Source: Diprion similis (Eukaryota > Arthropoda > Insecta > Hymenoptera > Diprionidae). From it: a DNA stretch of 64,000 bases. Below are positions 38,443-64,000 of the stretch, piece by piece (position 1 is the first letter of the stretch; every line of letters starts with the position of its first letter). Under the pieces are notes generated by a model. The model was given only the letters and a program-made list of their open reading frames with translations, made no database searches and was not told the DNA's origin. The position numbers were made by a program, and so were the translations under genes. The stretch covers positions 6,354,001-6,418,000 of the forward strand of contig NC_060109.1 of the NCBI RefSeq assembly GCF_021155765.1, read 5' to 3'.

Positions 38443-38446
38443 ATAT

Positions 38447-38803: not shown

Positions 38804-38807
38804 ATAT

Positions 38808-46030: not shown

Positions 46031-46142
46031 CTGCAATCCCGATAAGACAAATATTACTATCGTCGAATTTTTTATGTCTTTCGTCTCGCGGTAGTGTATG
46101 GGGCAAGGGGTAGAGGGTTTGGGGGTATTCAATGCATTTCAA

Positions 46143-46265: not shown

Positions 46266-46895
46266 AGTAGTATGTTGGTTCTGGATCACCGCGTGTGCGT
46301 GTGTCCGCGTGAGGTGTGCGTGCGTCCGTGTGACCGGCCTAAGCTGACTTAACGTGGATATGTTGGTTCTGGATCACCGCGTGTGTGTCCGTGTGTGTGT
46401 GTGCGTGCGTGTGTGTGTGACCGTGGTTCTCAACTCGTGGTTCTCAACCCGCGGTTCTCGACGTCTTACCATCGCGCGTGAGTGTGTTATCATCAGTGGG
46501 TGATTACCATCGGAGTGAGTTTAATGGTAAGTAGAACTCCCCTTCACGTCTGGCCAGCTGCCCAATTAAGACGTCGGGACGGATTTTAACTTCTGCATAA
46601 ACCTGTCGTCCGAAATTACCTTGTTTTCGCGGAAAACTTACAATGTCTCTCAATTTACCCCTTTGCATAAGTGTGTCGGTTTTTCGCGATTTAGCGCATC
46701 CGAAAATAACGGTGCATACAATGTCGCCTGGTCAGCAGCCCAATTTCAATGCATATACTCCCACCCGCCAACAAAGTTGCAGTCATTTCTAACAATGTAA
46801 CGTGCACCTCGCGAATCTGATATTTCTACATCCACCTACCCTCATTAGCAAACGATCATCAGAGATGCACTTCCCCGCACCCGCCAAATTCATAC
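46266..46895. other. GT-rich microsatellite and non-coding left flank of the Maverick
   Basis: tatgttggttctggatcaccgcgtgtg occurs twice (about 46272 and 46359), followed by (GT)n with CG interruptions to about 46424. 46430-46895 has no gene. The left terminal inverted repeat of the Maverick should be here but cannot be delimited, since its partner is not in the window. Confidence 0.45.
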
Positions 46896-46902
46896 TATAA
46901 AG
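46896..46902 (+). promoter_or_regulatory. TATA box upstream of the spliced signal-peptide gene
   Basis: tataaag, 54 bp upstream of the ATG at 46956, with a cagtctg-type initiator-like sequence at about 46928. Confidence 0.5.
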
Positions 46903-46955
46903 CGCAGAGTCTTGCTGCAGATGCTCACAGTCTGATTTTGCACTGCATCGCAATC

Positions 46956-47894
46956 ATGTACTTCATCGTCTCAATTTTCGCTTTCATTACCCTTGCGGCT
47001 GCTTGACCGCTCGACGAACAACCATCCTCAAACTTCAGCAACCTCGACGTGTTCTATCACTCCCCGGATGCTAGGGTGCGCGGTGATGGTCAAGTCGTCC
47101 ACATAGACGTCAGTGAAGTGATCGACTCTTACAAAACAACAACCAAATTCAATCGGACTTTCGCCGGAGGTAGCTATTACATCCTTACTATACCCTTTTT
47201 TGTGCACACCTTAAAACATTGTTTATTACCCTCCACAGTACATTTTGGTACTGCCTACAAAGTTCGACACCGCTCAACCACAACGACCATCGCGACTACC
47301 TCACGATGTGAGTATTCTCAATCTTCAGCCTACGCAAGTCTTTCACCATGTTTTTGCGTAACGTAAGCTATTATCGTTTCAGCCGAAACTGTAACATCAT
47401 CAACCACCGCTTCCACAATCAGCACAGTGCCCAACGACACCACTCCAATCATTAACACAACCGCCGCACCCGCCGGTGAGTCTTAATTATCCACTATTCA
47501 GTGCAAAAAAGTATATCCAAAGTTTTGATACCATACCAATCTTATTTTTTCAGAGTCAGTCGCAAAACCTTTCACCATCGACTCTTACTTTCAAACTCTC
47601 GCCATGATCAAAATCGACATGAAACTCAAGTTTATTATACGGTCATTACAAAAACTCACAAATCATTTTAATCTAGATTGTAACAATTCAACAAAGGTCC
47701 CGACATCACCCCCTACGACGTTCATATTACATGCAACTCCAATCGGAACAACCACCGCCGAACCGGAGCGCCAGTTATCAAATCCTGCAAACGACACTGC
47801 CACCATACAACAACTTATGGACCAGAACCGTCGATTGATGAAATACATGTCCAGACTTCAAACGAATCAAACATCTACACCCGACAGAAATTAA
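46956..47894 (+). pseudogene. Spliced Maverick gene: signal peptide, Thr-rich secreted/surface-type protein, stop after the leader
   Basis: Three exons, 46956-47307, 47383-47475 and 47554-47894, with GTGAGT donors, phase-1 junctions and introns of 75 and 78 bp; summed length 786 bp stays in one frame. The first 16 codons make a hydrophobic leader (MYFIVSIFAFITLAAA). Codon 17 is TGA (47004-47006) and the frame is then open to the end. The middle exon is Thr/Ser-rich (stalk-like) with NTT/NDT glycosylation-type sequons; the last exon has a helical C-terminus. The family is not recognised. A role as a virion surface or attachment protein is inference from leader, sequons and position. Confidence 0.55.
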
Positions 47895-48007
47895 TATTTG
47901 TTCACTCCTATACTGTGGTCATGTTCTAGCGAATTTTTTTTACCGCTCAATAACTTGTAGCCCCGTGGAGAAAATTGATAAAAACTATATAGTGTTACAA
48001 TAATTCT

Positions 48008-48346
48008 TTATTTTAATGTGCAATATAGACATATACTGCTTGGTATTATAAAATCCGAACTATCCTTACACAATCCACAATTCTGCGGTTGATTTGGCCA
48101 ACTTGATGCATCTTCAGCGCTGCTATAAGTTGAATGACGTATAAATGCCAATCCATCCTCTACCGATATGTCATAAGCATCCGCACATCCTGGACACAAC
48201 AGCTGTTCATCAGTCGCGTACCCAGCACTCACCAGGCAAACTCTCTTCATTCGTTTCGTAAGCGCACCAATTTCTACCGATCTTACAAGCGCATGTCTGC
48301 TGCATCGCTCATCCTCGGACTCATAATCGCTCGTATTTTGTTTCAC
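48008..48346 (-). CDS. Small Cys-rich (zinc-binding-type) Maverick ORF, unknown
   Basis: About 112 residues with three CxxC pairs in order: LCPGC, NCGLC and ICLYC. An acidic YESEDE stretch precedes them. The frame is open upstream to about 48410, without an ATG in good position. It overlaps plus-strand frames, and only its Cys spacing supports it. It could be a transcription-factor-like zinc ribbon, but this is a guess. Confidence 0.35.
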   Translation of the reverse strand: MKQNTSDYESEDERCSRHALVRSVEIGALTKRMKRVCLVSAGYATDEQLLCPGCADAYDISVEDGLAFIRHSTYSSAEDASSWPNQPQNCGLCKDSSDFIIPSSICLYCTLK

Positions 48347-48523
48347 AATGATAATCCATCTAGCATTTTTTTTGCAACGACGTTCTTATACCGTTCCCCA
48401 CCGCATTCGCTTCACCCTCGCCATTCAAAAGGTTACCCATGTCAATACATTATTACCATGCAATTATACAACGCTTCGTCACCGCCCGAAAGGCTTCCCC
48501 TACCACTGCTCGCCGCAATATGA

Positions 48524-48982
48524 AATGCTGCACTGCTATCTCGCATCCTCACAGTGTATTACTACAAGTTCGTTGCCTATCACTTCTACGCCGGCAATAT
48601 ATATCAAGGTGAAAATCGATTCTTTCTTCCACCAATTTTTCTGAACGTGCGCCATCAGTGCTATAAACAAGTTATACGTGATCATTCAATCCGACCGCGA
48701 TCTCTAGGAACTGCATATTTCAAATCAACGTGCAACAACTTGATTGATTTTCCCCAATACTGCCACAAGTGTCACATTTCCCTGCTCACGCAATCTGACG
48801 AGCCGGCTCGTTGCGAACCACGCATCCCATCACAGTCATCAGCGATATCCAGATTCAAAGACATCGAGTGGGATCCAATATACTTTTTTTACCAGGATCT
48901 CTCCGTAGTCGATGAATATATTTACGTTAGAGCTGCTAATGAGAACTATAGCATAATTGCTAATACTTTGCGCGAAGAGTAG
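48524..48982 (+). CDS. Uncharacterised Cys-containing Maverick ORF, possibly 5'-broken
   Basis: An open frame of about 150 codons between two stops, starting without an ATG. It contains a YCHKC...ARC pair that could bind zinc. Upstream, 48348-48644 is open in another frame with PYHCSPQY and further Cys residues, so a longer gene may be broken by a frame change near 48520. It lies directly before the DNA polymerase gene on the same strand. I do not recognise the family. Confidence 0.35.
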   Translation, partial: NAALLSRILTVYYYKFVAYHFYAGNIYQGENRFFLPPIFLNVRHQCYKQVIRDHSIRPRSLGTAYFKSTCNNLIDFPQYCHKCHISLLTQSDEPARCEPRIPSQSSAISRFKDIEWDPIYFFYQDLSVVDEYIYVRAANENYSIIANTLREE

Positions 48983-49054
48983 CTGCGAGTTGAATCGTAC
49001 ATTGTATCACGAGTGCTGTTCATATAATTTTCGCAACAGTTTTTTGGAGGCACA

Positions 49055-52000
49055 ATGGCAAACCGGTTCGACGAGTTTCATACCGTAATTGATAAATTAG
49101 ACATTGCATACCAGCGACTCACTACGGACTCCAATGAAGATCTCGCTTCGCAGTGGAACACTATTAGTCTCAAACTTCTAAAAACCCTCAACGACTTTTA
49201 CAGAGATCGAACCACCAGTTTTGCCGATATACGGAAGATTCAGACTCTCATTGTTAAATTGACCTCTCAACGTGCTGTGTCAAACCCTTCAATTCGAGGC
49301 GGCTCGCACGACGCTCCGGCCATTCAATGGAATGATTTGGAATCTGCGTTCGAGAAGCTTTTGATCACCGGAGTAATCACCAACGTTCGAATCGGCGATC
49401 TAAAACTATTCCTCACAGCTGCATACACAGTTATTTTCGAGAAACTCAACACATTGCTTCGCCAGCATCACCATCTGAAAGTCAACACCACGCTATCTGC
49501 AACTTTTGTCCTGGATGTGAAATCCGAAACAAAATTCTTCCATACGAAGAACGCCACTCTTCAAACAACCTCGAATCTGGCGGAATGGTACGAAGAGTAT
49601 GTTGCATCACCTCTACTGGCTCAAATCGAAGAATTTCAGGAGCGCGATAGTGGCTGGGCCTTGATTAGTATACATGACTTATTAGTTAACATTGAAAAGT
49701 ATGAGCCGTTGGTAGGTTCGATGTGGATAAACTTGCCGAGCGATATTAAGGTTAAAAAAGCCGTGGTTAATGTTCAAAATGCCGATAACGCTTGTTTTGC
49801 TTGGGCTTGCGTATCCGCTCGACATCCTGCTGCTTCACACGTGAATCGAGTAACTTACTACCCCCATTACAATCAAGTATTCAATTTCACTGGTATCAAA
49901 TTCCCTACAAAATTAAATTACATTCCGAAATTTGAGAAACTTGATAATATTTCCGTGAATGTATATATTCTGAAGAAAGGGGGAAGCGGCATCAAGTCGT
50001 ACCACTACTCATCAGTCGGTATGAAAACCCAAATATCGAACACAACAACTTGCTCATGCTACACGATGAAAACTTTGACGATGAATCCTCCCATGAAAGA
50101 ACACACTTCTGTTGGATTAAAAATTTATCGCGACGAGTCAATCGTCAATTAAACGCACGTACGGATGCAATCCATGTTTGTAATCGATGTTTACATTTTT
50201 TCTACTCCGAAGCAAAATTGCTCGCGCACAGGCTTGGTTGCAGTCCAGATACACCTTGTAAACTCACGCTTCCAGATCAGTTCAACAAGTGGTTACAGTT
50301 TGTGAATTACTCGAACAAAATGCAAGTACCATACATAGTTTACGCAGATTTTGAGTGTTTGTTGGAGAAATCCTCACAGTCTTCTGAATCATCGCATACG
50401 AAGATATATCAGAAACATGTACCATATAGCGTAGGTTATTATTTTAAATGTAGTCACGATGAGTCGCTATCATATTACAATTCCTATCGAAGTGTCGATT
50501 GTCAGAAATGGTTAGCCCATCATTTACATGGAATCGCAGTCAGGGTAGCTGAGTACTTCAATCAAAAGAAACCTATGTATCAATTGTCTGGTCAACAATA
50601 GGCTGAATTCGAAAACGCTGAAGTATGTCACATTTGCGAGCTAAAATTTGTGCATCTAAATGATCGCGTGACGGATCATTGTCATGTTAGAGGACTATAT
50701 CGTGGGCCTGCACATTCAAATTGTAATCTGAATTACAAACTCAATCGCACCGTACCCGTTGTGTTCCACAACTTGAGTGGTTACGATGCGCACTTCATAA
50801 TCGATGAATTGGCTAATATTAAATCATCCTCGCTCAGTGTTCTACCAATTACTAAAGAAAAGTACATAGCATTCACCCAGACGTTTCACAGCCTCGCCGT
50901 AAGACTTCAATTCATCGATTCTTATCGGCGTATGAGTTCGAGTTTAGCCGAACTAAGTTCTTACCTGCGGCACAATGATTTAACGAATTTGAAATGTCAA
51001 CTCCCCAACGCCACAGATTCGCAATTCAATCTTCTAACCCGCAAAGGGATATTTCCGTATGATTACGTGACCGAAGCTGACCGACTGAACGAACGCTCAT
51101 TACCCTCGAAAGAATCATTTTATAACGTATTGAACGACCAAAATATTGAAGACGAAGACTATGCTCATGCACAGAACGTTTGGCACAGTTTTAATAGTGA
51201 TTTGTATCTGAAAATTGACGTAATGCTCCTCCCAGACGTCTTTCAAAATTTCCGCGATAATTGCCTTCGAATATATAAGCTAGATCCAGCACACTACTGT
51301 ACCTTACCCGGTTTTACTTGGGATTGCATGCTTTTCAACACCAAAATTCAGCTGGAATTGCTAACGGACGTTGATATGCTGCTGTTCATTGGAGGAGGCT
51401 TGCGTGGAGGATTGAGTCAATGCTCGAATCGATACAGTAAAGCGAATAATAAATGTATGACAGATTACAATCCGCAGTTGGAAACCAAATCATTGCTCTA
51501 CTTAGACGTAAATAATTTATATGGTTGGGCGATGTCTCAGTACCTGCATTGTAGAAATTTTGAATGGGTGCATCGAGTACATGATTTTGATTTCATGCAC
51601 GTTGGCGAAGAGTCTGATGATGGATACATATTGGAGGTAGATTTCGAATATCCCACCAATGTTTACGTATTACATCAAGACTTACCCTTTTGTCCAAATC
51701 ATCAAAAACCCCCCGGTGGGAAAACTCCGAAACTTTTAGCTACGTTGCAGAACAAGACACGTTATGTTATACATCATCGTAATTTGCAACAGTGTGTGAC
51801 AAACGGTTTGATATTGCGTAAAATTCATAGAATATTGAAATTCAAACAATCAGCATGGTTAAAGAGTTATATTGATTTGAACACGGCGTTAAGAGCCAAA
51901 AGTGCTAACAAATTCGAACAGAATCTGTACAAACTGATGAACAACGCGGTATTTGGTAAAACGATGGAAAATGTTCGTAAATATTCCGACGTCAAGTTAG

Positions 52001-52659
52001 CGCAAAAATGGCATGGACGTTGCGGTGCCAAAGCACTAATATCGCGACCAAATTTCCACAGTCGAAGTATATTCGATGAAAATTTCGTTGTGATACAGCT
52101 GAACAGGCTCGGAGTGATATTTAACAAGCCAATTTACGCCGGAATGGCCATTCTAGTTTTATCCAAAATTTGCGTCTACGACTTTCATTATTTTTTCATG
52201 TTACCAAAGTTGAAATCAAATTGTAAGTTAATGTATACCGATACGGATAGTCTTATTTATGAAATAAAATCTTGCGACGTTTATGAATTCATTCGCAACA
52301 ATATTGACAGATTCGACACCAGCGATTATCCTGCGGATAATATTTATAAAATCCCTCAGGTCAACATAAAAGTTGTAGGACTAATAAAGGATGAGAGAAA
52401 TGGCGAAATAATGACTGAATTTGTCTAATTGCGATCCAAAATGTATGCGACGCGAATGGATGACAATAAGATCGCGAAGAGAGCAAAAGGTGTGAAAAAT
52501 AATGTATTGAACAATCGAATAACTTTCGAAAATTATCTCGACTGCCTTAACCAACACGAGAGTATTTCAAAAACGCAGCGAACCATTCGTTCGAATCTGC
52601 ATAAAGTGTATTCAATTCGACAATTGAAACTTGCTTTAAGCCATCACGATAATAAGTGA
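49055..52659 (+). pseudogene. polB: Protein-primed family B DNA polymerase of the Maverick, three breaks
   Basis: Polymerase that replicates the element from a terminal protein. The ATG at 49055 begins the long N-terminal domain of insect Maverick PolB (ERDSGWALISIHDL, DNACFAWACVSA). Exonuclease motifs: YADFE at 50341, NLSGYDAHF at about 50772, YLKIDVMLLPD at about 51208. Polymerase motifs: A (DVNNLYGW, 51505), B (KLMNNAVFGK, 51931), C (YTDTDS, 52234), all intact. A C.IC...DHCH...HSNCN zinc-binding HNH-like stretch is at 50629-50730. Breaks: a frame change near 50000, in-frame TAG at 50599-50601 and in-frame TAA at 52426-52428. Full length would be about 1200 residues, normal for the family. 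Confidence 0.9.
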
Positions 52660-52794
52660 TATTTACTACCCGATAGTACAAACACGTTACCCTGGGGACA
52701 TGTAAAAATTACACCATCTGTATAGAAATAATATTTATTTAACAAAAAATATAAACACGATGTGAATAAAACGACTACAATGCATTGTCTTTAT
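52660..52794. terminator. Convergent 3' ends of polB and integrase
   Basis: AT-rich 135 bp with AATAAT/AATAAA-like signals in both directions; the two genes end facing each other. Confidence 0.35.
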
Positions 52795-53682
52795 TTATCC
52801 AAGAATTATGTGATTTATCCAGACCCAACCACTTCCTTTTCTCTTCAAAACTTTCTCCACTAAATATATGTCGGGATATTTCACGGAATGCAGTTCTTGT
52901 TCACAGAAATCTCCCTCGATTGGGTTTGACTGCTGATCTATCAGAAGATAAGTTCGCGGATTTGTGTTTTGTACTTTTTGAATCTTAAAAATTTCGGTCG
53001 ACCAATTTGGTGTGTAACCTTTTGCGAATATCGTCTTGTACTTGCTAACTCTTACGAAATCGCCCACTTTATAATTTGCTGGCTTAACTTGTTTAACGTT
53101 GCTGTAGACTGTTGCGAGTAACTGATTTGTATTTTTACGTTTCACTTTTATCGGTGCCATACCCGTGGTACGATGTTTGCTCTTATTGTATTCCGCCACC
53201 AACTGTTGTATATTATCAATCCATTTGTATGATCCGTTCAGGCTGAATGATCGCCACATTTTATCCTTGAGTGTGCGATTCCAACGTTCTATCACCGATG
53301 CCTTCATAGCGCTGTAGATTGAGTAATGGTTGATGTTGTGCTTTTTTATTAAATTTTTTAATTCGGCATTGAAAAATTCTTTACCGTCGTCCGACTGAAG
53401 ATTCTTAGGTGAACGGCCGCTTTGAAGAACTTCTTTAAATCCGTCGACAACCGATTGAGCACACTTATTTTTCAGTGCCACAGCCCACGCGAATTTGGAT
53501 AACACGTCGATGACCGTTAGAATGTAATTGATATTTTGATTTATTTTGACATACTGCCGCATTTCGACCAAATCCGCTTGCCACAAGTCATCAAAGCCTT
53601 TCACGATCACTCGTCGGCGCTTAAAGTTACGACGAGCCGGTGCATGCAGCTCTCTGACCAGCTGTATTTTCTCCCCACTCAT
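52795..53682 (-). CDS. int: Retroviral-type (DDE) integrase of the Maverick
   Basis: Intact, 295 residues, start ATG at 53682. It catalyses insertion of the element into host DNA. The catalytic acids are D37 (WQADLVEM), D98 (LQSDDGKEFF) and E132 (ASVIERWNRTLK). The C-terminal region YKVGDFVRVSK...WSTEIFKIQKV forms the SH3/chromodomain-like DNA-binding tail usual in Polinton integrases. The start codon overlaps the stop of the upstream gene as ATGA, so the two are probably translated from one message. Length is close to family norm and no break is seen. Confidence 0.9.
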   Translation of the reverse strand: MSGEKIQLVRELHAPARRNFKRRRVIVKGFDDLWQADLVEMRQYVKINQNINYILTVIDVLSKFAWAVALKNKCAQSVVDGFKEVLQSGRSPKNLQSDDGKEFFNAELKNLIKKHNINHYSIYSAMKASVIERWNRTLKDKMWRSFSLNGSYKWIDNIQQLVAEYNKSKHRTTGMAPIKVKRKNTNQLLATVYSNVKQVKPANYKVGDFVRVSKYKTIFAKGYTPNWSTEIFKIQKVQNTNPRTYLLIDQQSNPIEGDFCEQELHSVKYPDIYLVEKVLKRKGSGWVWINHIILG

Positions 53683-54821
53683 TCTTCAAAAATAATATTA
53701 GCTTCACGTAATTCCTCCACTATTGAGATAATCTCATTCGTGTTAGCCGTGTTACCAGCAGCCTCGGAATGACTCAATAACCACAACCTGTCCACCAACT
53801 CGTTTGGATCATCCCAATATGTATACGCTAATCGAGAATTCTTTCGCACGATATGTTTACTGGTGTTGAGACCTTCGCCGAGTGCCGAGCGACTTGGAAA
53901 TAACTTGCGTATAATGTTCCGATATTTGTAGGATTTATTCCCGCATACTTGACCAGTTTTTAGATAGCCTCTTTTGTGGGCATTTGTCGAATCTATGATG
54001 TCGCGATATTTACGAAAATCATCATCCGTGTAAATATCTTCGTCGGGGATTTTCTTAAACATGAGTTCCAATGTACCCGGAGTTGTTTTGAATCGCATGT
54101 TTTTAACGTAAAAATGATCTAGCTCAAATTCAATCGTTGAGTCACCAATCATGAAACCAGGGGCCCCATCATTGTTCACAAATCTAATTCCGTTAACCGA
54201 ATCCATTGTATTTGCCGTATCGCGAATTGAATTCATTATATAATTCTTGGCCAAAGTGCCAAAGTTTTCCTCGAACGCGCGTTCCATGTGCATTGAAGTA
54301 TCAGGGTCAGCCATCTGCTCCATCAACGCCGACCACGGCGATTCCGTATGAGATTCGGTGACTGGCGTCGTGTAAGCCGTTTCACGCAAGATGGGAATAG
54401 TTCGCTCAATCGTAACGTTCGCGTGATCTTTGATATCACTGCTTCCACGTGTATTAGGTGTAGATTTCTCCAGACCCACTCTGCGTTGAAATACTTTCCT
54501 GATAAGCGATTGATTCGGTTTTTGTATGCGATATTCTGAGTTTGGAGTCTGTTTGTAATAGTCCCAAGCCATACTATTATCCAATTCATCATCATCATCA
54601 TCATTTTCAGCAAACACTTCATGCTTTATAGCATCCACTTTGAACTCAGATGCCTTTGCTATAGCAGTCAGCGGCTCAACAATCGGTTTAAAAGTTCTCT
54701 CCATCGCTTCGCTGTCGGCTATGCGATCAGTTTTCAATGCTTGATATTTCTTCCTCACCGCATCGCTTGCTTCCACTATATTGCGCTTTAAATCGGTCTC
54801 AGATTCCGTTGTCTTCAGCAT
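53679..54821 (-). CDS. Conserved Maverick protein of unknown function, 380 residues
   Basis: Intact frame; the first ATG is at 54821 (MLKTTESETD). The N-terminus is charged and helical (about residues 10-60), the middle (residues 110-170) is Pro/Thr/Ser-rich, and the last third contains TPGTLELMFK, KYRDIIDSTNAHKRGYL and a C-terminal AGNTANTNEIISIVEELREANIIFEE-like segment that I recognise as recurring in insect Maverick proteins next to the integrase. Position between ATPase and integrase on the same strand, with an ATGA overlap to the integrase, suggests one transcript. Function is not known to me. Confidence 0.75.
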   Translation of the reverse strand: MLKTTESETDLKRNIVEASDAVRKKYQALKTDRIADSEAMERTFKPIVEPLTAIAKASEFKVDAIKHEVFAENDDDDDELDNSMAWDYYKQTPNSEYRIQKPNQSLIRKVFQRRVGLEKSTPNTRGSSDIKDHANVTIERTIPILRETAYTTPVTESHTESPWSALMEQMADPDTSMHMERAFEENFGTLAKNYIMNSIRDTANTMDSVNGIRFVNNDGAPGFMIGDSTIEFELDHFYVKNMRFKTTPGTLELMFKKIPDEDIYTDDDFRKYRDIIDSTNAHKRGYLKTGQVCGNKSYKYRNIIRKLFPSRSALGEGLNTSKHIVRKNSRLAYTYWDDPNELVDRLWLLSHSEAAGNTANTNEIISIVEELREANIIFEE

Positions 54822-54880
54822 ACTTGAAGATGTTATAGGCACACATTCAGACGTAACACTGTAACCTCAGGCGGGTTACA

Positions 54881-55573
54881 TCACGTTTTTATGATAAATT
54901 CATCGAACCCTCTGCGATATCGGCCGGAATTCATAGGACTATCTTTATCAATCGTAAGAAATCCATACTTCGAACGCCAGCAGATGGAGCATAATTTTTC
55001 AAATTCAACATACTTCATATTTGTATTCACATGATCATCGAATACATGCCGCAAGTTCTTAGCGTCTTGTTTGAAAAGAATTATGAAGTTTGCATTGTCA
55101 CCAATCAGATGTTTGGGGATTCTTGTGTATGTTTGACACAGATAGAAACAATCAACTGATTTATGTCGACCCATGCAGAAATATTCCCTAACCACGTCCT
55201 GCTTATCACAGGCAATATCGTCGAAAATAAAAATCGTGTTCGGCTTGGATTGCTTTACCGGAATTACGTCACAATTGTTGGAATAGGTAAGATAGGACAC
55301 ACCAGGTACACGATTCAAGACCTTGCGTAAATATTCATATTTTGGCTGTGCCAAAGACTTGGAATATATGTATACATTCTGGAAACGTAATCCGTTGGGA
55401 TTAATGAGAAGGCTGATAACTACGTTGGTTTTTCCGCAATTCGAAGGTCCGCAAATAATACTTCTTACGGATGTCGGTAATAGTTTACCGTGGCGATTAA
55501 TTTTTGACACATGTTGCACGTCGTTGTCCAAATTTTTGATTGGTAAAGTGACGGACTGTTTCATAAATTTCAT
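54881..55573 (-). CDS. A32/FtsK-like genome-packaging ATPase
   Basis: Intact, 230 residues, ATG at 55573. ATP-driven DNA packaging motor of the Polinton/PLV/adintovirus/NCLDV A32 family. Walker A is GPSNCGKT at residues 42-49; Walker B is TIFIFDD at 113-119. A FCMGRHKSVDCFYLCQTYTRI segment follows, as in insect Maverick ATPases. It is divergently transcribed from the PLA2 gene with about 68 bp between start codons. It lies inside the inverted repeat except for its last ten codons (the outer arm end is set by the window edge). A second copy runs off the right edge. Confidence 0.9.
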   Translation of the reverse strand: MKFMKQSVTLPIKNLDNDVQHVSKINRHGKLLPTSVRSIICGPSNCGKTNVVISLLINPNGLRFQNVYIYSKSLAQPKYEYLRKVLNRVPGVSYLTYSNNCDVIPVKQSKPNTIFIFDDIACDKQDVVREYFCMGRHKSVDCFYLCQTYTRIPKHLIGDNANFIILFKQDAKNLRHVFDDHVNTNMKYVEFEKLCSICWRSKYGFLTIDKDSPMNSGRYRRGFDEFIIKT

Positions 55574-55641
55574 GTTGTTGCATGAGTCTCAGTGGGCGAA
55601 TACATACTGATCAGTTGTTTTTCGGACGCTTGATAGCACAC

Positions 55642-56415
55642 ATGCCCAGAGGACGAGGAATGTTAAATACCGCAATCAATAACTTACCCATTGAGCTACA
55701 TCTACCGGGTCATCAGTTCTGCGGTCCTGGAACCCGTTTGCAGCAGCGTCTTGCCAGCGGTCAAACGGGAGTGAATTTGTTGGACAAAGCCTGTCGAGAA
55801 CATGATATTGCCTATGCGAAAAGTAAAGATCTAAAATTTAGACACGAGGCTGATGAAAGGTTGGCTCAGGCAGCGTTGCAACGCAGTCGTGACAAGGAAG
55901 CAAAGTGGACAGAACGTGCAGCAGGTTGGGCAGTTAACATAACCATGCTTACTAAAGTCAAACTTGGTATGGGTATTAGAAAACCCTCGATACGTGCTGC
56001 TATAATATCCGCGCGTCAAGCGGTGAAAAAGTTTAAACCGACGGACAAAGGGGGCGCGATACGCATAGCGCTCAAAGCAGCGAAACAGGCAATTGGAGGG
56101 GATAAGAAGAATGGTAAATTGCCCAGAGTGTTGAAGGTTGCAAAGTACGGTGGTTTTCTACCGCTATTAATACCTATATTCGCGGGCCTATCAGCCGCGG
56201 GATCGTTGGCAGGTGGGGCAGCAGGCATTGCTGAAGCGGTGAATGATGCGTCGAGCGCGGCTAAAAAATTGGAAGAAAACGAACGTCACAATGAGACAAT
56301 GGAGGCTATCGCATTGGGTGGACGTGGTAGGGGACTTCATTCAGCACCTTACAAGAAAGGATGGGGGCTATTCTTGAAATCAACCAACAAGCTAAAAAAA
56401 AACTCCAAAACGTGA
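55642..56415 (+). CDS. Phospholipase A2-domain minor virion-type protein
   Basis: 257 residues from the ATG at 55642 (MPRGRGM); an in-frame ATG at 55582 would add 20 residues but leaves only 8 bp to the divergent ATPase start, so the inner one is preferred. The parvovirus VP1-like PLA2 fold is shown by the calcium loop CGPGT (27-31) and catalytic ACREHDIAYAK (His54-Asp55). Such domains breach endosomal membranes in parvoviruses and occur in Polintons/adintoviruses. A basic middle is followed by a Gly/Ala-rich hydrophobic stretch (171-200). LGGR/G at 225-229 fits the adenain cleavage rule (M/L/I)xGx-G. No break is seen. Confidence 0.85.
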   Translation: MPRGRGMLNTAINNLPIELHLPGHQFCGPGTRLQQRLASGQTGVNLLDKACREHDIAYAKSKDLKFRHEADERLAQAALQRSRDKEAKWTERAAGWAVNITMLTKVKLGMGIRKPSIRAAIISARQAVKKFKPTDKGGAIRIALKAAKQAIGGDKKNGKLPRVLKVAKYGGFLPLLIPIFAGLSAAGSLAGGAAGIAEAVNDASSAAKKLEENERHNETMEAIALGGRGRGLHSAPYKKGWGLFLKSTNKLKKNSKT

Positions 56416-56465
56416 AACTTCCGTAAGGGGTTACTACAGACCGTGAACTGTGGAAATTTGCCAAA

Positions 56466-56774
56466 ATGATGAAAATATCACATTTCCGGGGTATTTTCAT
56501 GCGGAACAATTTACCGAAACGAATCGGAGTTCGCGAGAGCGGAATCATAAATTTAGATAGTGATGCGGGAGTGGGGACACATTGGGTGGCTTATAAAAAA
56601 ATTGGACACAATGTGTATTATTACGAAAGTTTTGGCAATTTACCACCGCCAAACGAAGTTGTGCGATACTTCGGTGGAAGGAATGTTATCTGGTACAATC
56701 ATGGCAGGCATCAGTCTGACAACGCATCCAATTGCGGAGACTTGTGTTCGAAATTTCTCTCAGCGAAGGAATAA
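56466..56774 (+). CDS. Adenain-like cysteine protease (virion maturation)
   Basis: 102 residues, compact for the family. Catalytic residues are in adenain order and spacing: His39 (GTHWVAY), acidic Glu54 (YYYESFG), Gln83 of the oxyanion hole and Cys90 (NCGDLC) seven residues later. It would process capsid and minor proteins. It lies 50 bp after the PLA2 gene on the same strand, and its stop overlaps the next start as TAATG (56772-56776). No break is seen. Confidence 0.88.
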   Translation: MMKISHFRGIFMRNNLPKRIGVRESGIINLDSDAGVGTHWVAYKKIGHNVYYYESFGNLPPPNEVVRYFGGRNVIWYNHGRHQSDNASNCGDLCSKFLSAKE

Positions 56775-57937
56775 TGTCTATAACCTTCACGTTAACGGGT
56801 AATACATCGACCCTGAGTGCGAATTACCTTCCACCAATAATTCTAAATCACCGCAAATCGTATTCAATGGGACTGGTCACGTTTTAATCATACAATTCAA
56901 CACCCAACATTGATGAAACATGCAACAGCTTGGGTTATAATTACAATAATCGAATTACTACACCAATAATTCTAAATCACCGCAAATCGTATTCAATGGG
57001 ACTGGTCACGTTTTAATCATACAATTCAACACCCAACATTGATGAAACATGCAACAGCTTGGGTTATAATTACAATAATCAAATTACTACACCGACGGGG
57101 TCGTATACCATTGAGGATGTAAACAAATATCTGCAAAAACATATGGAATACGTGATTGATGTTTCACAAAATGTTAGCGCTGGTAAAAAGGTGGTCGAAG
57201 GACCACACATAATAATTCGAGCCAACAATAATACACTTAAATCGGAAGTTTGGTGTAGATGGGACATTGATTTCTTGGATGGTAACTCGATAGCGTCATT
57301 GTTAGGGTTTGATGATGGTGAGATACGTAAAGCAGGGGAATGGCACGAGTCGACAAACCCGATAAAAATATCTAAAGTTAATTCCATTGAAGTGGAGTGT
57401 AGCGTAACATATGGCGCATTCAGCAATAGTTCGCAGGCTCACACGATACACGAATTTTCGCCAGACGTTCCGCCAGGTTATAAAATTTCGGAATCGCCCC
57501 GGAGCATCATCTACATGCCGGTGAGTGTTCGCGTGATTGACAACATAACGCTGAGTATATCAGTCGATCGTTGCAATTTACGCAACGTTAAGCTGTTTCT
57601 GAACAGCGATTCATATCCATATGAGAATCTAAACGTAAGCTGTAAAAATGAACAATTTGCTCTACTGTACGATATGTATGCTAAGTTCCAGAATTCATAT
57701 TATGGAAATGAGAATAGACCGATTCTGGACATGCAAACATACGTCAAGGATGCGCCAATAATAGTGATAGATTGTTCGCGACAAAATGAATCTATAAAAA
57801 GTGCTACAGTTGACATACGAATAGAATTTGAGAGCGAAACGGATATAGAGGATGGCACGGCTGCATATTGTCTCATACTGCACGATCGAATCGTCGAGTA
57901 CACACCTCTAACGAACGTTGTTCGGAAATTGCTGTAA
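56774..57937 (+). pseudogene. Chimeric penton/major-capsid pseudogene
   Basis: The frame from ATG 56774 opens with the N-terminus of the Maverick penton-like (single jelly-roll) protein (MSITFTLTGN), continues with its SIASLLGFDDG, VNSIEVECSVTYGA and HTIHEFSPDVPPGYKI segments to about residue 260 of the open part, then passes near VDRCNLRNV into what I recognise as the C-terminal part of the double-jelly-roll major capsid protein (ENLNVSC, LLYDMYAKFQNSYY, DCSRQNES, AYCLILHDRIVEY). Most of the capsid protein is thus deleted. A 129-bp in-frame tandem duplication (56832-57089) doubles a segment that contains an in-frame TAA, so stops occur at 56885-56887 and 57014-57016. Stop 57935-57937 overlaps the next gene's ATG. 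Confidence 0.7.
56832..57089 (+). repeat. 129-bp tandem duplication, two units
   Basis: caccaataattctaaatcac starts at 56832 and again at 56961; the units match except g/a at 56951/57080 and the terminal bases. The period is a multiple of three, so the reading frame is unchanged. Confidence 0.95.
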
Positions 57938-58437
57938 TGGATTGTATGTTCGTGGATGTGCAGGGATTTATCGGCGTTTGGAATAATTTCGTGGTGAAAG
58001 AAGTCGCATTTCATGAGAACACAGCAGAGACCATGAGCCATTACATATTTCGAGATCCATACGCCTGGAACCTGTTGTCGAATGAACTGCGGCATCAAGT
58101 GAAGTATCTTACGCATAATCATCATGGATTCCGGTGGACAGATGGTTTTACAACTTATGGCAACTTGAGGAGGATTATACGCGATCACCTGGGCAGAACG
58201 CCGCTGGTGCTTGTCAAGGGATTGGAAAAAATTCGTTGGTTGGAGGAATATGCGGAAAGTTTGAATGCAGTGGATATGATGGAACTGGGCTGTCCAGCGA
58301 TTGGAATGTTAAGGAAATCCTACGACAAGAAGATGGATGATTGCAGCTTTCATTCAGGGATTTGTGCGTTTGAAAACGTACAACTCATGAGACTGTGGTA
58401 CAATGAAAATCAGGATAAGAGTAATTTCGATGAATGA
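57937..58437 (+). CDS. Maverick protein with FVDVQGF motif, unknown function
   Basis: 166 residues, intact; start ATG 57937 overlaps the preceding stop (TAATG), preferred over an alternative upstream start in the overlapping frame. It opens MDCMFVDVQGF, has WNNFVVKEVAF, then NHHGFRWTDGF, VLVKGLEKIRWLEEY and ELGCPAIGMLRK. I recognise this as a recurrent protein of arthropod Mavericks; the N-terminal hydrophobic-D-x-x-G-F strand followed by KE recalls an RNase H/DEDD exonuclease fold, but that is inference. Expression is probably coupled to the capsid message. Confidence 0.7.
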   Translation: MDCMFVDVQGFIGVWNNFVVKEVAFHENTAETMSHYIFRDPYAWNLLSNELRHQVKYLTHNHHGFRWTDGFTTYGNLRRIIRDHLGRTPLVLVKGLEKIRWLEEYAESLNAVDMMELGCPAIGMLRKSYDKKMDDCSFHSGICAFENVQLMRLWYNENQDKSNFDE

Positions 58438-58495
58438 AATAAATGTACACTGATTGTTAAAAAATAAAAAATTGATCATATTTTAATAAAGTTTT

Positions 58496-58983
58496 TTATT
58501 CAATCAATACATTATTATCAATAAGGTTTAAATTTGTTTTTTGAGTGGTTCGGCGTTTGCGTTCTGGTTTGCTGCCGGGGAGTTTGCGGATTCGGGAGAT
58601 GACTTTCGCAGTCAGGTCACCCAAAAGCTGATATTCGGGAGAGCTTCGGTTGGTTGTGAACTGCATGTTGGACAGAGCGATTCGCCACCAGTCAGTCTTA
58701 TCAGTTCGTAGAATATCCTTGGTATTGTAGATTTTAATTTGGACGGTTACCTCTCCGTTTCCGACGTCGTTGTTGAGAGAACAGGAATGTGTGTCGGTGA
58801 GTAGTTTGATGGATTCGGGAATACCAGTCTTCGGCTCGTTCTCCGGTAATACATCCCATTCGGGTAGCAGTTGACTCAAACCAACGTCTTCGAAAAATGA
58901 GTTGTTCGATGCGGTTGTTGGCTCATCGAGTAAGTTTGTCTGTGACAAAAATAATTCATTGGTTAGGATGCGATCAACGCCGG
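58496..58983 (-). pseudogene. 5'-truncated copy of the Maverick ORF at 59887-60414
   Basis: Identical to the right-arm gene from codon 14 to the stop, but the inverted repeat ends inside the gene, so the ATG and first 13 codons are lost and replaced by (CA)n sequence; a stop lies immediately upstream in frame. It converges on the FVDVQGF gene with 58 bp between stops. Confidence 0.8.
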
Positions 58984-58988
58984 TTCAT

Positions 58989-59019
58989 ACACACACACAC
59001 ACGCACGCACACACACACA
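58989..59019. repeat. (CA)n microsatellite at the inverted-repeat junction
   Basis: Nearly pure CA with two G interruptions, starting six bases after the end of the left arm. Confidence 0.9.
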
Positions 59020-59064
59020 AGCAGTTCGCCCGCAGAAATCCGCAGATAAAAAATCTCTTTCATC

Positions 59065-59566
59065 ATGTCAGACTTCCATCTGAAAAACAACGTCGGTGTA
59101 GTTTCGGCCCAACTCGACTGGACCGGCCTTAGGCGGCTCACCGGCGAGCCTCTGCGAGAACACTTTGCCCAGCAGTGGGCTCGAGTTCGTTGCGGCACAG
59201 TTGGTGCCGTCCGAGGAAAAAATGTACCAGGCTACATTTGCCTGCGATGTTTCGTCGTCCAGTGAGTATACACAACGCCTTAAAAATCATCTACCATCAA
59301 AATCGCTTACAAAACATCACTTTTGCAGCGCCAACATAGAACTCTTTGACAACAATGTGCTATTCCACATATCGTTCGTGAAACCTGACTCGTTGACGTG
59401 TCGAGTTTGTGGAGACAGCTTATTCGAAACAACCCGGCCAACAGAGGGTTGTACCAAGTGCGACGAAGTGATGGTGAAATTAAAACATATTGCCGAAAGT
59501 ATTCATTTTTACTTTCAATTCAACGTCGGAACACGCCTCCAACACCGCACTCGCACATTCCCCTAA
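59065..59566 (+). CDS. Two-exon zinc-binding Maverick gene in the palindrome spacer
   Basis: Exons 59065-59261 and 59329-59566 with a 67-bp GTGAGT...TTTTGCAG intron; total 435 bp, 144 residues, one frame. The N-terminal half (MSDFHLKNNVG...) ends in YICLRC just before the intron; the second exon supplies CRVCGD and, 17 residues later, CTKC, so three CxxC pairs could bind zinc. Without splicing the frame stops at the intron border. It is unique in the window and lies between the inverted arms. Family not recognised; a small transcription or regulatory factor is a guess. Confidence 0.6.
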
Positions 59567-59800
59567 AAATATAATGTCTGCAGTATCATTTCCGGCCTCA
59601 AGCTCAGAGGTCATCAACTTCCGCCTCCTAATAGTCGATTACCCCGCCATTAATTTTCCGCTCAATGCAGGTTTATAATCAGTCATTCATATGCTCTGCT
59701 TCCGTATGCAAAAGAATTACATTATATGCAGAACGTCCTCACGTGAGTTATTGCCCACAGCCATAATTGTTTCATACTCCCACCACCATTTTCCCCTGTA
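59567..59800 (+). other. Spacer; short ORF of 34 codons at 59574-59678
   Basis: ATG 59574 opens a short frame (MSAVSFPASSSEV...) that stops at 59678; a GCAG/GTTT junction at about 59666 could be a splice donor to an unseen exon. Nothing else is recognised. Confidence 0.3.
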
Positions 59801-59808
59801 TATATAAA
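59801..59808 (+). promoter_or_regulatory. TATA box for the 59887 gene
   Basis: tatataaa, 79 bp upstream of the ATG at 59887; absent from the left arm, whose copy of the gene is truncated. Confidence 0.5.
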
Positions 59809-59886
59809 CTTCATCATACACCACCCGAAGTCACAATCACTCCGCAAGCTGAACGATCTCCACGCAAGCTGAACAATCTACACGCA

Positions 59887-60414
59887 ATGGCTGAACTGCA
59901 AGAATTGGTAAATATACACCGCGCCGCCGGCGTTGATCGCATCCTAACCAATGAATTATTTTTGTCACAGACAAACTTACTCGATGAGCCAACAACCGCA
60001 TCGAACAACTCATTTTTCGAAGACGTTGGTTTGAGTCAACTGCTACCCGAATGGGATGTATTACCGGAGAACGAGCCGAAGACTGGTATTCCCGAATCCA
60101 TCAAACTACTCACCGACACACATTCCTGTTCTCTCAACAACGACGTCGGAAACGGAGAGGTAACCGTCCAAATTAAAATCTACAATACCAAGGATATTCT
60201 ACGAACTGATAAGACTGACTGGTGGCGAATCGCTCTGTCCAACATGCAGTTCACAACCAACCGAAGCTCTCCCGAATATCAGCTTTTGGGTGACCTGACT
60301 GCGAAAGTCATCTCCCGAATCCGCAAACTCCCCGGCAGCAAACCAGAACGCAAACGCCGAACCACTCAAAAAACAAATTTAAACCTTATTGATAATAATG
60401 TATTGATTGAATAA
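59887..60414 (+). CDS. Maverick ORF of unknown function (full-length copy)
   Basis: 175 residues from ATG 59887 (MAELQELVNIHRAAGV), preceded by a TATA box. Acidic first half (PEWDVLPENEPK), a TVQIKIYNTKDILRTDKTDWWRIAL region, and a basic Lys/Arg-rich stretch (KLPGSKPERKRRTTQK) before the end that resembles a nuclear localisation signal. Left copy lacks the first 13 codons. It converges on the FVDVQGF gene. Family not recognised. Confidence 0.65.
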   Translation: MAELQELVNIHRAAGVDRILTNELFLSQTNLLDEPTTASNNSFFEDVGLSQLLPEWDVLPENEPKTGIPESIKLLTDTHSCSLNNDVGNGEVTVQIKIYNTKDILRTDKTDWWRIALSNMQFTTNRSSPEYQLLGDLTAKVISRIRKLPGSKPERKRRTTQKTNLNLIDNNVLIE

Positions 60415-60472
60415 AAAACTTTATTAAAATATGATCAATTTTTTATTTTTTAACAATCAGTGTACATTTATT

Positions 60473-60973
60473 TCATTCATCGAAATTACTCTTATCCTGA
60501 TTTTCATTGTACCACAGTCTCATGAGTTGTACGTTTTCAAACGCACAAATCCCTGAATGAAAGCTGCAATCATCCATCTTCTTGTCGTAGGATTTCCTTA
60601 ACATTCCAATCGCTGGACAGCCCAGTTCCATCATATCCACTGCATTCAAACTTTCCGCATATTCCTCCAACCAACGAATTTTTTCCAATCCCTTGACAAG
60701 CACCAGCGGCGTTCTGCCCAGGTGATCGCGTATAATCCTCCTCAAGTTGCCATAAGTTGTAAAACCATCTGTCCACCGGAATCCATGATGATTATGCGTA
60801 AGATACTTCACTTGATGCCGCAGTTCATTCGACAACAGGTTCCAGGCGTATGGATCTCGAAATATGTAATGGCTCATGGTCTCTGCTGTGTTCTCATGAA
60901 ATGCGACTTCTTTCACCACGAAATTATTCCAAACGCCGATAAATCCCTGCACATCCACGAACATACAATCCAT
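60473..60973 (-). CDS. FVDVQGF-motif Maverick protein, right-arm copy
   Basis: Same 166 residues as the gene at 57937-58437, intact; its ATG (60973) overlaps the capsid-chimera stop. Confidence 0.7.
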   Translation of the reverse strand: MDCMFVDVQGFIGVWNNFVVKEVAFHENTAETMSHYIFRDPYAWNLLSNELRHQVKYLTHNHHGFRWTDGFTTYGNLRRIIRDHLGRTPLVLVKGLEKIRWLEEYAESLNAVDMMELGCPAIGMLRKSYDKKMDDCSFHSGICAFENVQLMRLWYNENQDKSNFDE

Positions 60974-62136
60974 TACAGCAATTTCCGAACAACGTTCGTT
61001 AGAGGTGTGTACTCGACGATTCGATCGTGCAGTATGAGACAATATGCAGCCGTGCCATCCTCTATATCCGTTTCGCTCTCAAATTCTATTCGTATGTCAA
61101 CTGTAGCACTTTTTATAGATTCATTTTGTCGCGAACAATCTATCACTATTATTGGCGCATCCTTGACGTATGTTTGCATGTCCAGAATCGGTCTATTCTC
61201 ATTTCCATAATATGAATTCTGGAACTTAGCATACATATCGTACAGTAGAGCAAATTGTTCATTTTTACAGCTTACGTTTAGATTCTCATATGGATATGAA
61301 TCGCTGTTCAGAAACAGCTTAACGTTGCGTAAATTGCAACGATCGACTGATATACTCAGCGTTATGTTGTCAATCACGCGAACACTCACCGGCATGTAGA
61401 TGATGCTCCGGGGCGATTCCGAAATTTTATAACCTGGCGGAACGTCTGGCGAAAATTCGTGTATCGTGTGAGCCTGCGAACTATTGCTGAATGCGCCATA
61501 TGTTACGCTACACTCCACTTCAATGGAATTAACTTTAGATATTTTTATCGGGTTTGTCGACTCGTGCCATTCCCCTGCTTTACGTATCTCACCATCATCA
61601 AACCCTAACAATGACGCTATCGAGTTACCATCCAAGAAATCAATGTCCCATCTACACCAAACTTCCGATTTAAGTGTATTATTGTTGGCTCGAATTATTA
61701 TGTGTGGTCCTTCGACCACCTTTTTACCAGCGCTAACATTTTGTGAAACATCAATCACGTATTCCATATGTTTTTGCAGATATTTGTTTACATCCTCAAT
61801 GGTATACGACCCCGTCGGTGTAGTAATTTGATTATTGTAATTATAACCCAAGCTGTTGCATGTTTCATCAATGTTGGGTGTTGAATTGTATGATTAAAAC
61901 GTGACCAGTCCCATTGAATACGATTTGCGGTGATTTAGAATTATTGGTGTAGTAATTCGATTATTGTAATTATAACCCAAGCTGTTGCATGTTTCATCAA
62001 TGTTGGGTGTTGAATTGTATGATTAAAACGTGACCAGTCCCATTGAATACGATTTGCGGTGATTTAGAATTATTGGTGGAAGGTAATTCGCACTCAGGGT
62101 CGATGTATTACCCGTTAACGTGAAGGTTATAGACAT
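60973..62136 (-). pseudogene. Chimeric penton/major-capsid pseudogene, right-arm copy
   Basis: Identical to 56774-57937, with the same fusion point, the same 129-bp duplication (61821-62078) and both in-frame TAA codons (62023-62025 and 61894-61896). Sharing these lesions shows that the inverted duplication came after them. Confidence 0.7.
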
Positions 62137-62444
62137 TATTCCTTCGCTGAGAGAAATTTCGAACACAAGTCTCCGCAATTGGATGCGTTGTCAGACTGAT
62201 GCCTGCCATGATTGTACCAGATAACATTCCTTCCACCGAAGTATCGCACAACTTCGTTTGGCGGTGGTAAATTGCCAAAACTTTCGTAATAATACACATT
62301 GTGTCCAATTTTTTTATAAGCCACCCAATGTGTCCCCACTCCCGCATCACTATCTAAATTTATGATTCCGCTCTCGCGAACTCCGATTCGTTTCGGTAAA
62401 TTGTTCCGCATGAAAATACCCCGGAAATGTGATATTTTCATCAT
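62136..62444 (-). CDS. Adenain-like cysteine protease, right-arm copy
   Basis: Identical to 56466-56774; His39, Glu54, Gln83 and Cys90 retained, no break. Confidence 0.88.
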   Translation of the reverse strand: MMKISHFRGIFMRNNLPKRIGVRESGIINLDSDAGVGTHWVAYKKIGHNVYYYESFGNLPPPNEVVRYFGGRNVIWYNHGRHQSDNASNCGDLCSKFLSAKE

Positions 62445-62494
62445 TTTGGCAAATTTCCACAGTTCACGGTCTGTAGTAACCCCTTACGGAAGTT

Positions 62495-63268
62495 TCACGT
62501 TTTGGAGTTTTTTTTTAGCTTGTTGGTTGATTTCAAGAATAGCCCCCATCCTTTCTTGTAAGGTGCTGAATGAAGTCCCCTACCACGTCCACCCAATGCG
62601 ATAGCCTCCATTGTCTCATTGTGACGTTCGTTTTCTTCCAATTTTTTAGCCGCGCTCGACGCATCATTCACCGCTTCAGCAATGCCTGCTGCCCCACCTG
62701 CCAACGATCCCGCGGCTGATAGGCCCGCGAATATAGGTATTAATAGCGGTAGAAAACCACCGTACTTTGCAACCTTCAACACTCTGGGCAATTTACCATT
62801 CTTCTTATCCCCTCCAATTGCCTGTTTCGCTGCTTTGAGCGCTATGCGTATCGCGCCCCCTTTGTCCGTCGGTTTAAACTTTTTCACCGCTTGACGCGCG
62901 GATATTATAGCAGCACGTATCGAGGGTTTTCTAATACCCATACCAAGTTTGACTTTAGTAAGCATGGTTATGTTAACTGCCCAACCTGCTGCACGTTCTG
63001 TCCACTTTGCTTCCTTGTCACGACTGCGTTGCAACGCTGCCTGAGCCAACCTTTCATCAGCCTCGTGTCTAAATTTTAGATCTTTACTTTTCGCATAGGC
63101 AATATCATGTTCTCGACAGGCTTTGTCCAACAAATTCACTCCCGTTTGACCGCTGGCAAGACGCTGCTGCAAACGGGTTCCAGGACCGCAGAACTGATGA
63201 CCCGGTAGATGTAGCTCAATGGGTAAGTTATTGATTGCGGTATTTAACATTCCTCGTCCTCTGGGCAT
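62495..63268 (-). CDS. PLA2-domain minor virion-type protein, right-arm copy
   Basis: Identical to 55642-56415 (start ATG 63268; alternative 63328); CGPGT and HD motifs retained, no break. Confidence 0.85.
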   Translation of the reverse strand: MPRGRGMLNTAINNLPIELHLPGHQFCGPGTRLQQRLASGQTGVNLLDKACREHDIAYAKSKDLKFRHEADERLAQAALQRSRDKEAKWTERAAGWAVNITMLTKVKLGMGIRKPSIRAAIISARQAVKKFKPTDKGGAIRIALKAAKQAIGGDKKNGKLPRVLKVAKYGGFLPLLIPIFAGLSAAGSLAGGAAGIAEAVNDASSAAKKLEENERHNETMEAIALGGRGRGLHSAPYKKGWGLFLKSTNKLKKNSKT

Positions 63269-63336
63269 GTGTGCTATCAAGCGTCCGAAAAACAACTGAT
63301 CAGTATGTATTCGCCCACTGAGACTCATGCAACAAC

Positions 63337-64000
63337 ATGAAATTTATGAAACAGTCCGTCACTTTACCAATCAAAAATTTGGACAACGACGTGCAACATG
63401 TGTCAAAAATTAATCGCCACGGTAAACTATTACCGACATCCGTAAGAAGTATTATTTGCGGACCTTCGAATTGCGGAAAAACCAACGTAGTTATCAGCCT
63501 TCTCATTAATCCCAACGGATTACGTTTCCAGAATGTATACATATATTCCAAGTCTTTGGCACAGCCAAAATATGAATATTTACGCAAGGTCTTGAATCGT
63601 GTACCTGGTGTGTCCTATCTTACCTATTCCAACAATTGTGACGTAATTCCGGTAAAGCAATCCAAGCCGAACACGATTTTTATTTTCGACGATATTGCCT
63701 GTGATAAGCAGGACGTGGTTAGGGAATATTTCTGCATGGGTCGACATAAATCAGTTGATTGTTTCTATCTGTGTCAAACATACACAAGAATCCCCAAACA
63801 TCTGATTGGTGACAATGCAAACTTCATAATTCTTTTCAAACAAGACGCTAAGAACTTGCGGCATGTATTCGATGATCATGTGAATACAAATATGAAGTAT
63901 GTTGAATTTGAAAAATTATGCTCCATCTGCTGGCGTTCGAAGTATGGATTTCTTACGATTGATAAAGATAGTCCTATGAATTCCGGCCGATATCGCAGAG
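63337..64000 (+). CDS. Packaging ATPase, right-arm copy, cut by window end
   Basis: Identical to the left copy from ATG 63337; the window stops about ten codons before the expected stop. Walker A and B are both included. Confidence 0.88.
   Translation, partial: MKFMKQSVTLPIKNLDNDVQHVSKINRHGKLLPTSVRSIICGPSNCGKTNVVISLLINPNGLRFQNVYIYSKSLAQPKYEYLRKVLNRVPGVSYLTYSNNCDVIPVKQSKPNTIFIFDDIACDKQDVVREYFCMGRHKSVDCFYLCQTYTRIPKHLIGDNANFIILFKQDAKNLRHVFDDHVNTNMKYVEFEKLCSICWRSKYGFLTIDKDSPMNSGRYRR

What the first reader, a model, noticed from the sequence alone, without database searches (positions are those of the whole stretch)
54910..64000. A Maverick/Polinton folded into a giant palindrome: arms of at least 4.07 kb, 943-bp spacer
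Positions p and 118910-p are complementary across the arms, and all genes read identically, including shared inactivating lesions. Spacer 58984-59926 holds unique genes. The left copy of the 59887 gene is cut at the junction while the right one is whole, so the event has a direction. Candidate mechanisms are template switching at replication forks of a protein-primed element, head-to-head joining of two copies, or break-induced foldback at the adjacent (CA)n. I know of no described dimeric, palindromic Maverick form.
Basis: partly seen in the sequence, partly recalled or inferred. Interest (0 to 1): 0.85.

Follow-up and report, generated by a model that had tools for sequence, protein, structure and literature searches.

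The report
Two dead Polintons fused into palindrome
Two old, broken virus-like transposons lying nose to nose in an arthropod-like chromosome appear to have been fused after they had decayed, with one overwritten by the other's sequence, leaving a near-perfect palindrome; ordinary chromosome repair explains it better than a new form of the transposon.

Summary
The palindrome is in the assembly and larger than reported: arms 48513-58983 and 59927-70397 (window numbering, read past the window), 10,471 bp with 1 mismatch, spacer 943 bp. It is probably not a dimeric Maverick. The two elements have different polymerase-side ends (type B, 46260-48512; type A, 70398-71465), each with a terminus and its own flank. 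The second half of the left element's target repeat is missing; its only two long, close copies in the genome lie on other contigs, uninterrupted. The arms share a private 129-bp duplication, single in 24 other loci, and a private branch of 2.9% against 0.05% between arms, so they were made alike late. Best reading: two separate insertions fused, both spacer-side ends lost, one interior overwritten by break repair or arm-to-arm conversion; the donor side is open. A second inverted pair (C9/C5) has one target duplication around it, but a mosaic left terminal repeat points to nested insertion plus repeat-repeat deletion. An assembly error is not excluded.

The parts
44029..46259 (.). host repeat that the left element entered (envelope ORFs of Baculo_F type at 44192-45637 and 45730-46050, minus strand); its other half is missing from the locus
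   Evidence: 92.7% to L055, ending exactly at 46259; Pfam Baculo_F; continuation not found up to window-equivalent 83500, two long close copies elsewhere
46260..48512 (+). left element, polymerase-side end of type B, beginning AGTAGCAGTAGTATG
   Evidence: contiguous with the same end at 6 other places at 85-90%, two of them near-copies of each other; terminus and flank TATGTA; 48439-48512 is of type B, the right element has type A there
48513..58983 (+). left arm of the palindrome, identical to the right arm but for position 50087
49055..52428 (+). family B DNA polymerase in pieces (49055-50152, 50050-50601, 50650-52428)
   Evidence: ORFs; Pfam DNA_pol_B_2 1e-18 on 50650-52428
52795..53682 (-). 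retroviral-type integrase
   Evidence: Pfam rve 7.8e-12
54881..55573 (-). A32-like packaging ATPase
   Evidence: Pfam Pox_A32 4.2e-6, 26.9 bits against a cut-off of 22.8
55582..56415 (+). ORF with a phospholipase A2-like domain
   Evidence: Pfam Phospholip_A2_4 3.6e-11
56832..57089 (+). 129-bp tandem duplication found double only in the two arms (mirror 61821-62078)
   Evidence: two copies in each arm, one in each of 24 other loci
57059..57937 (+). ORF with the last part of a double jelly-roll capsid domain
   Evidence: Pfam DJR-like_dom 3.2e-46, profile positions 181-316 of 316
58984..59018 (.). 35-bp CA-rich filler at the fusion point
   Evidence: absent from 7 of 7 other spacer-side ends printed; 27 nt identical, inverted, to the left element's terminal repeat at 46393-46419; low complexity, so weak
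59019..59926 (+). unique spacer: spacer-side end of the right element, its outer terminal repeat lost
   Evidence: 13 other places match across 59019-60200 at 81-94%, within 5 bases of its start
59927..64000 (-). right arm of the palindrome, continuing to 70397; the right element ends at 71465 with a type A polymerase-side end

Best explanation
Two Polintons of one family, left (type B polymerase-side end) and right (type A), were separate insertions lying head to head. Late in their life, probably after both had decayed, a break between them was repaired. The spacer-side end of the left element, the second half of its target repeat, the outer terminal repeat of the right element and whatever lay between were lost. 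The interior of one (I think the left, from 48513 to 58983) was replaced by copying its inverted neighbour over 10,471 bp, and the end was joined through a 35-bp CA-rich filler to the right element at 59019. A two-step version, fusion first and arm-to-arm gene conversion later, gives the same sequence. Shown: two end types, a lost half-site, loss of both spacer-side termini, changes shared by the arms and by no other copy examined, a sharp switch inside homologous sequence at 48512/48513. Inferred: the break, the donor side and the order of steps.
For: Outer ends of different types, each with a recognisable terminus. Outer flanks TATGTA and GAGAAC do not match. The left target repeat runs on past the insertion point in L055 and L058; that continuation is not found up to window-equivalent 83500, and a genome search for 1,000 bp of it gave 2 long close copies (C4, C12), two weak ones (67-68%; C1, C2) and two short pieces (111 and 92 bp; C2), none on C5: loss rather than a reciprocal inversion. 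Arms differ at 1 of 10,471 positions, while in a tree of 16 sequences over 1,888 bp the pair has a private branch of 0.029. A 129-bp tandem duplication is double in both arms and single in 24 other loci. Over 51000-53600 the arms are 15-49 bp shorter than 14 of 15 full-length matches. Identity changes from 100% to about 80% within homologous sequence at 48512.
Against: A mismatched target duplication is weak alone: of 6 ordinary copies with both termini read, 2 match fully, 1 at 5 of 6 bases and 3 do not match. Private changes may in part predate integration; I did not test whether the broken polymerase is private. The donor side is unsettled: the unshared right end is nearest to copy C5:5712-5725 (93.3%, next 91.8%), and so is the shared 48513-50400 (95.0%, tree support 0.647), but over the shared 51000-53600 C14:2387445 is slightly nearer (95% against 94%), and just inside 59927 it is about as near. 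No reads, no second individual and no sister species were available. The filler is low-complexity.
Confidence: 0.72

Rival explanations
1. Assembly error: two real, different Polintons were joined or overwritten wrongly, or chimeric fold-back reads were assembled.
For: The arms are nearly identical and over 10 kb long, and no reads can be seen here. Fold-back chimeras are known from some amplified libraries (recalled, no call).
Against: The arms end inside the element at a switch to a type B end with its own flank, the junction has a 35-bp filler absent from 7 of 7 other ends printed, and one arm mismatch remains. 60 contigs for 269 Mb and a TTAGG array at the start of C1 suggest a long-read assembly (inference).
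Confidence: 0.14
2. Fold-back of a broken right element: its 3' end snapped back and copied itself outwards, and the copy was then captured by a type B end on the left through homology.
For: A palindrome with a spacer of about 0.9 kb fits fold-back; fold-back inverted duplications at breaks are described (PMC10622511 and PMC3907307, seen as titles and abstract starts in the listing).
Against: It still needs the left element beforehand for the type B end with its target flank, so it adds a step. By eye the junction and filler show no pairing to the sequence next to 59927 (sequence).
Confidence: 0.1
3. One reading: a dimeric palindromic replicative form of a Maverick that integrated as a unit.
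For: Protein-primed relatives such as adenovirus make palindromic defective genomes (recalled, no call). A second inverted pair here, C9:10850795-10879849, does occupy one target site with GTGAGC on both sides.
Against: In the window the outer ends differ in type and flank and no inner terminus is left, the left half-site is missing, and late changes are shared. In the C9 pair the left terminal repeat is a mosaic, as nested insertion plus deletion predicts.
Confidence: 0.03

Closest known systems
Maverick/Polinton transposons
   Same: integrase, family B polymerase, A32-like ATPase, double jelly-roll capsid domain; termini starting AG, 6-bp target duplications in some copies
   Different: the two in the window are broken, fused head to head and lack both spacer-side termini
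Palindromes kept alike by arm-to-arm gene conversion, e.g. on the human Y chromosome (PMC6790999, abstract and section list seen)
   Same: long, almost identical arms around a spacer
   Different: made from two transposon copies; whether conversion continues or was a single event is unknown
Inverted duplications from break repair or replication switching (PMC10766186, abstract and section list seen; PMC10622511 and PMC3907307, listing only)
   Same: inverted copy, asymmetrical junction
   Different: one end here is a switch within homologous sequence (48512), and sequence was lost at the junction
Palindromic defective adenovirus genomes (recalled, no call)
   Same: protein-primed relatives that can form inverted dimers
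   Different: replicative products; here the ends are unmatched and the event looks chromosomal

Membership tests
Maverick/Polinton | family B DNA polymerase | tested here: met
   DNA_pol_B_2, 1e-18
Maverick/Polinton | retroviral-type integrase | tested here: met
   rve, 7.8e-12
Maverick/Polinton | A32-like ATPase | tested here: met
   Pox_A32, 26.9 bits against a cut-off of 22.8
Maverick/Polinton | double jelly-roll major capsid protein | tested here: met
   DJR-like_dom, 3.2e-46, last part of the profile only
Maverick/Polinton | adenain-type cysteine protease | tested here: inconclusive
   ORF 56466-56774 gave no Pfam family at 0.01; none of the other ORFs scanned gave a protease family
Maverick/Polinton | terminal inverted repeats beginning AG and 6-bp target duplication | tested here: inconclusive
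   termini present; duplication exact in 2 and 5/6 in 1 of 6 ordinary copies with both termini read; not matched in the window
Dimeric palindromic Maverick integrated as a unit | both outer ends in one target site | tested here: not met
   TATGTA vs GAGAAC; missing half-site
Dimeric palindromic Maverick integrated as a unit | outer terminal repeats of one variant | tested here: inconclusive
   second motif ATC vs CTC, first motif deleted in the right element; other single ends also mix these variants
Dimeric palindromic Maverick integrated as a unit | arms duplicated before decay in the chromosome | tested here: not met
   arms share late changes found in no other copy examined; part of these might predate integration
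Chromosomal palindrome from break repair or gene conversion | near-identical arms with a sharp switch inside homologous sequence | tested here: met
   48512/48513
Chromosomal palindrome from break repair or gene conversion | seen in single molecules and in more than one individual | not testable with these tools
   no reads or other individuals held

The most novel reading that the evidence does not exclude
Head-to-head and tail-to-tail fusions are a recurrent fate of Polintons in this genome (window pair, C9/C5 pair, C4:9.87 Mb junction), driven by their long terminal repeats, and the resulting palindromes are kept identical by continuing arm-to-arm conversion, so that dead elements keep one shared sequence.
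Probability: 0.12. Interest if true: 0.5.

Novelty: new member of a known kind. Interest (0 to 1): 0.3.

Why it matters
It shows how a striking palindrome of a virus-like element can be misread as a replicative dimer. End types, target half-sites and private changes separate an integration event from later chromosome repair, and the same tests found a mosaic terminal repeat that explains a second, more deceptive pair. If reads confirm the palindrome, it is a clean natural example of a 10-kb repair or conversion tract between inverted transposon copies.

Tried and rejected
Unit integration of the window pair: rejected on end types, flanks and half-site. Reciprocal inversion: rejected because the missing half-site has no further long close copy (6 of 6 candidates scored). 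Unit integration of the C9 pair: at first it looked strong, since the joined flanks match three uninterrupted host-repeat copies at 93-95% over 300 bp with GTGAGC at both ends and its two outer termini both carry the ACC variant. It was set aside because alignment columns 135-450 of the left terminal repeat match the inner element's other end (93.3% and 97.5%; against the outer element's end 78.4% and 88.3%), while the outermost part carries the outer element's variants. In that outermost block overall identity does not separate the two (92.5% against 91.7%), so the mosaic rests there on a few variant sites. The C5 near-copy of this pair was first taken as independent; its right flank is alike too, its left flank gave no C5 row near the expected place (40 of 119 candidates scored), and no terminus was found in L036. 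Age: not calibrated. Filler origin: open. Rfam: no family in the window at gathering score. Literature, open-licence papers only: 'polinton' with 'palindrom' (44 papers, 20 listed), 'maverick', 'polinton', 'head-to-head' (174 with two of three, 25 listed) and a mixed search (680, 15 listed) showed no palindromic Polinton in the titles and abstract starts listed. In PMC12721341 'head-to-head' refers to gene order (5 passages). In PMC6035795 (12 passages) the words 'nested' and 'inverted' do not occur.
Full report
WHAT IS THERE. The inverted repeat is exact from 54910 to the window's end; 54910 is merely the mirror of the window's edge. Using the window's own genome (269 Mb, 60 contigs; window = C5:6354001-6418000) I read on to the right. 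The arms are 48513-58983 and 59927-70397, 10,471 bp with one mismatch (50087/68823). Identity then falls within homologous sequence to about 80% for 74 bp, and contiguous homology ends.

WHICH ELEMENTS. Pfam finds a family B polymerase, rve integrase, A32-like ATPase, phospholipase-like ORF and double jelly-roll capsid domain, the gene set of Polintons. Many related copies lie elsewhere in the genome (the tool calls its counts lower bounds). At 13 other places the match runs unbroken across 59019-60200, from the spacer into the right arm (81-94%), so the spacer is a normal element end. Its outer terminal repeat is missing here, and the 35 bp of (CA)n in its place are filler. Polymerase-side ends come in two types. 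In type A (five other copies) the terminal repeat adjoins the polymerase region; type B (six other places) has about 1.7 kb more. The right element is type A and ends at 71465; the left is type B and begins at 46260.

TWO SITES, NOT ONE. The flanks are TATGTA on the left and GAGAAC on the right. I give this little weight, because 3 of 6 ordinary copies with both termini read also fail to match. Stronger is the target itself. The left element entered a repeat whose copies L055 and L058 run on past the insertion point. In the window's locus that continuation is not found up to window-equivalent 83500. A genome search for 1,000 bp of it gave two long close copies, those on C4 and C12, besides two weak matches (C1, C2) and two short pieces (C2). 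So the left element's second half-site is lost. Terminal-repeat variants say little for the window: the left end has ATC at both motifs, the right has CTC at the second and has lost the first, but two other single ends (C1 and C14:334 kb) also mix ATC and CTC.

WHEN. In a tree of 16 sequences for 48513-50400 the two arms form one tip pair, split by 0.0006 and set apart by a branch of 0.029, as long as the longest among the other copies (loci that did not cover the stretch were left out, and two of the 16 are near-copies of each other). A 129-bp tandem duplication is double in both arms and single in 24 other loci (25 rows, two of which I read as one split locus). Over 51000-53600 the arms are 15-49 bp shorter than 14 of 15 full-length matches; one match is shorter (40 of 102 candidates scored). 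The arms were therefore made alike late, most likely after integration and decay. That disfavours a replicative dimer, though some of these changes could predate integration.

HOW. I favour loss at a break between two head-to-head elements, with copying of one interior from its inverted neighbour, ended by joining through filler; fusion followed by arm-to-arm conversion fits as well. The switch at 48512/48513 is what the end of a conversion tract or a strand invasion leaves. I lean to the right element as donor. The unshared right end and the shared 48513-50400 both lie nearest to the copy at C5:5712-5725 (tree support 0.647), and the left element's unshared end is nearest to C2:1314556 (90%), whose neighbourhood (C2:1323779) is not nearest over the shared 51000-53600 (92%). 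Against this, over 51000-53600 C14:2387445 is slightly nearer than C5:5715427 (95%, 94%), and just inside 59927 C14 is about as near.

OTHER INVERTED PAIRS. At C9:10850795-10879849 two copies lie tail to tail, with a near-copy at C5 (99.67% over 5,771 bp across the junction; right flank alike too). The arms there are about 90% alike next to the junction, so it is no assembly fold-back. The pair as a whole sits in one target site with GTGAGC on both sides, and its joined flanks match three uninterrupted host-repeat copies. A dimer integrated as a unit would leave this. But the left terminal repeat is a mosaic. Columns 135-450 are like the inner element's other end (93.3%, 97.5%), while the outermost part carries CC and ACC where that end has TT and ATC. 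In ordinary copies the two ends agree well at these sites: of seven with both ends read, three show no difference where both can be compared (one of them with an eroded end, one compared at the first motif only), and four show one to three single-base differences (by eye). Identity over the outermost block does not itself decide (92.5% to the outer element's end, 91.7% to the inner one's). Insertion of one element into the other, followed by recombination between two terminal repeats in direct orientation, explains all this and the exact inner terminus at the junction. At C4:9871501-9875000 a shortened polymerase-side end meets a spacer-side end head to head, a third inverted junction, more diverged.

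LIMITS. No reads, second individual or named species were available. The TTAGG array at the start of C1 and the Baculo_F-type envelope ORFs suggest an arthropod. An assembly error stays possible (0.14).

Noticed in passing
G000:C9:10850795-10879849 (L008, L018, L006) and G000:C5:6611780-6630917 (L017, L007): Tail-to-tail Polinton pair; on C9 it sits in one target site and has a mosaic left terminal repeat. The junction and right flank recur nearly identically on C5.
   Followed up: yes
L068 (G000:C4:9871501-9875000): Head-to-head junction of a shortened polymerase-side end and a spacer-side end, with a 250-bp insert 97% like window 24439-24687.
   Followed up: partly
46260-48438 and relatives: Polinton ends of two types on the polymerase side: type B carries about 1.7 kb more than type A; its small ORF 48008-48346 has no Pfam family.
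   Followed up: partly
30231-40732: Another large inverted structure: arms 30231-32291 and 38805-40732, 91-99% complementary in blocks, with a third partial copy in direct orientation at 36466-38445. Not identified.
   Followed up: no
41069-43767: 2.7-kb repeat with a 98.3% inverted copy at C5:6346491-6349189, with about 50-bp inverted ends.
   Followed up: no
44192-46050: Envelope ORFs of Baculo_F type on the minus strand in the repeat that the left Polinton entered.
   Followed up: no
C2:1116719-1153963, C3:18655344-18671017, C9:10631382-10650342: Three Polinton copies in ordinary orientation whose flanking 6 bp do not match, though their terminal repeats look alike.
   Followed up: no
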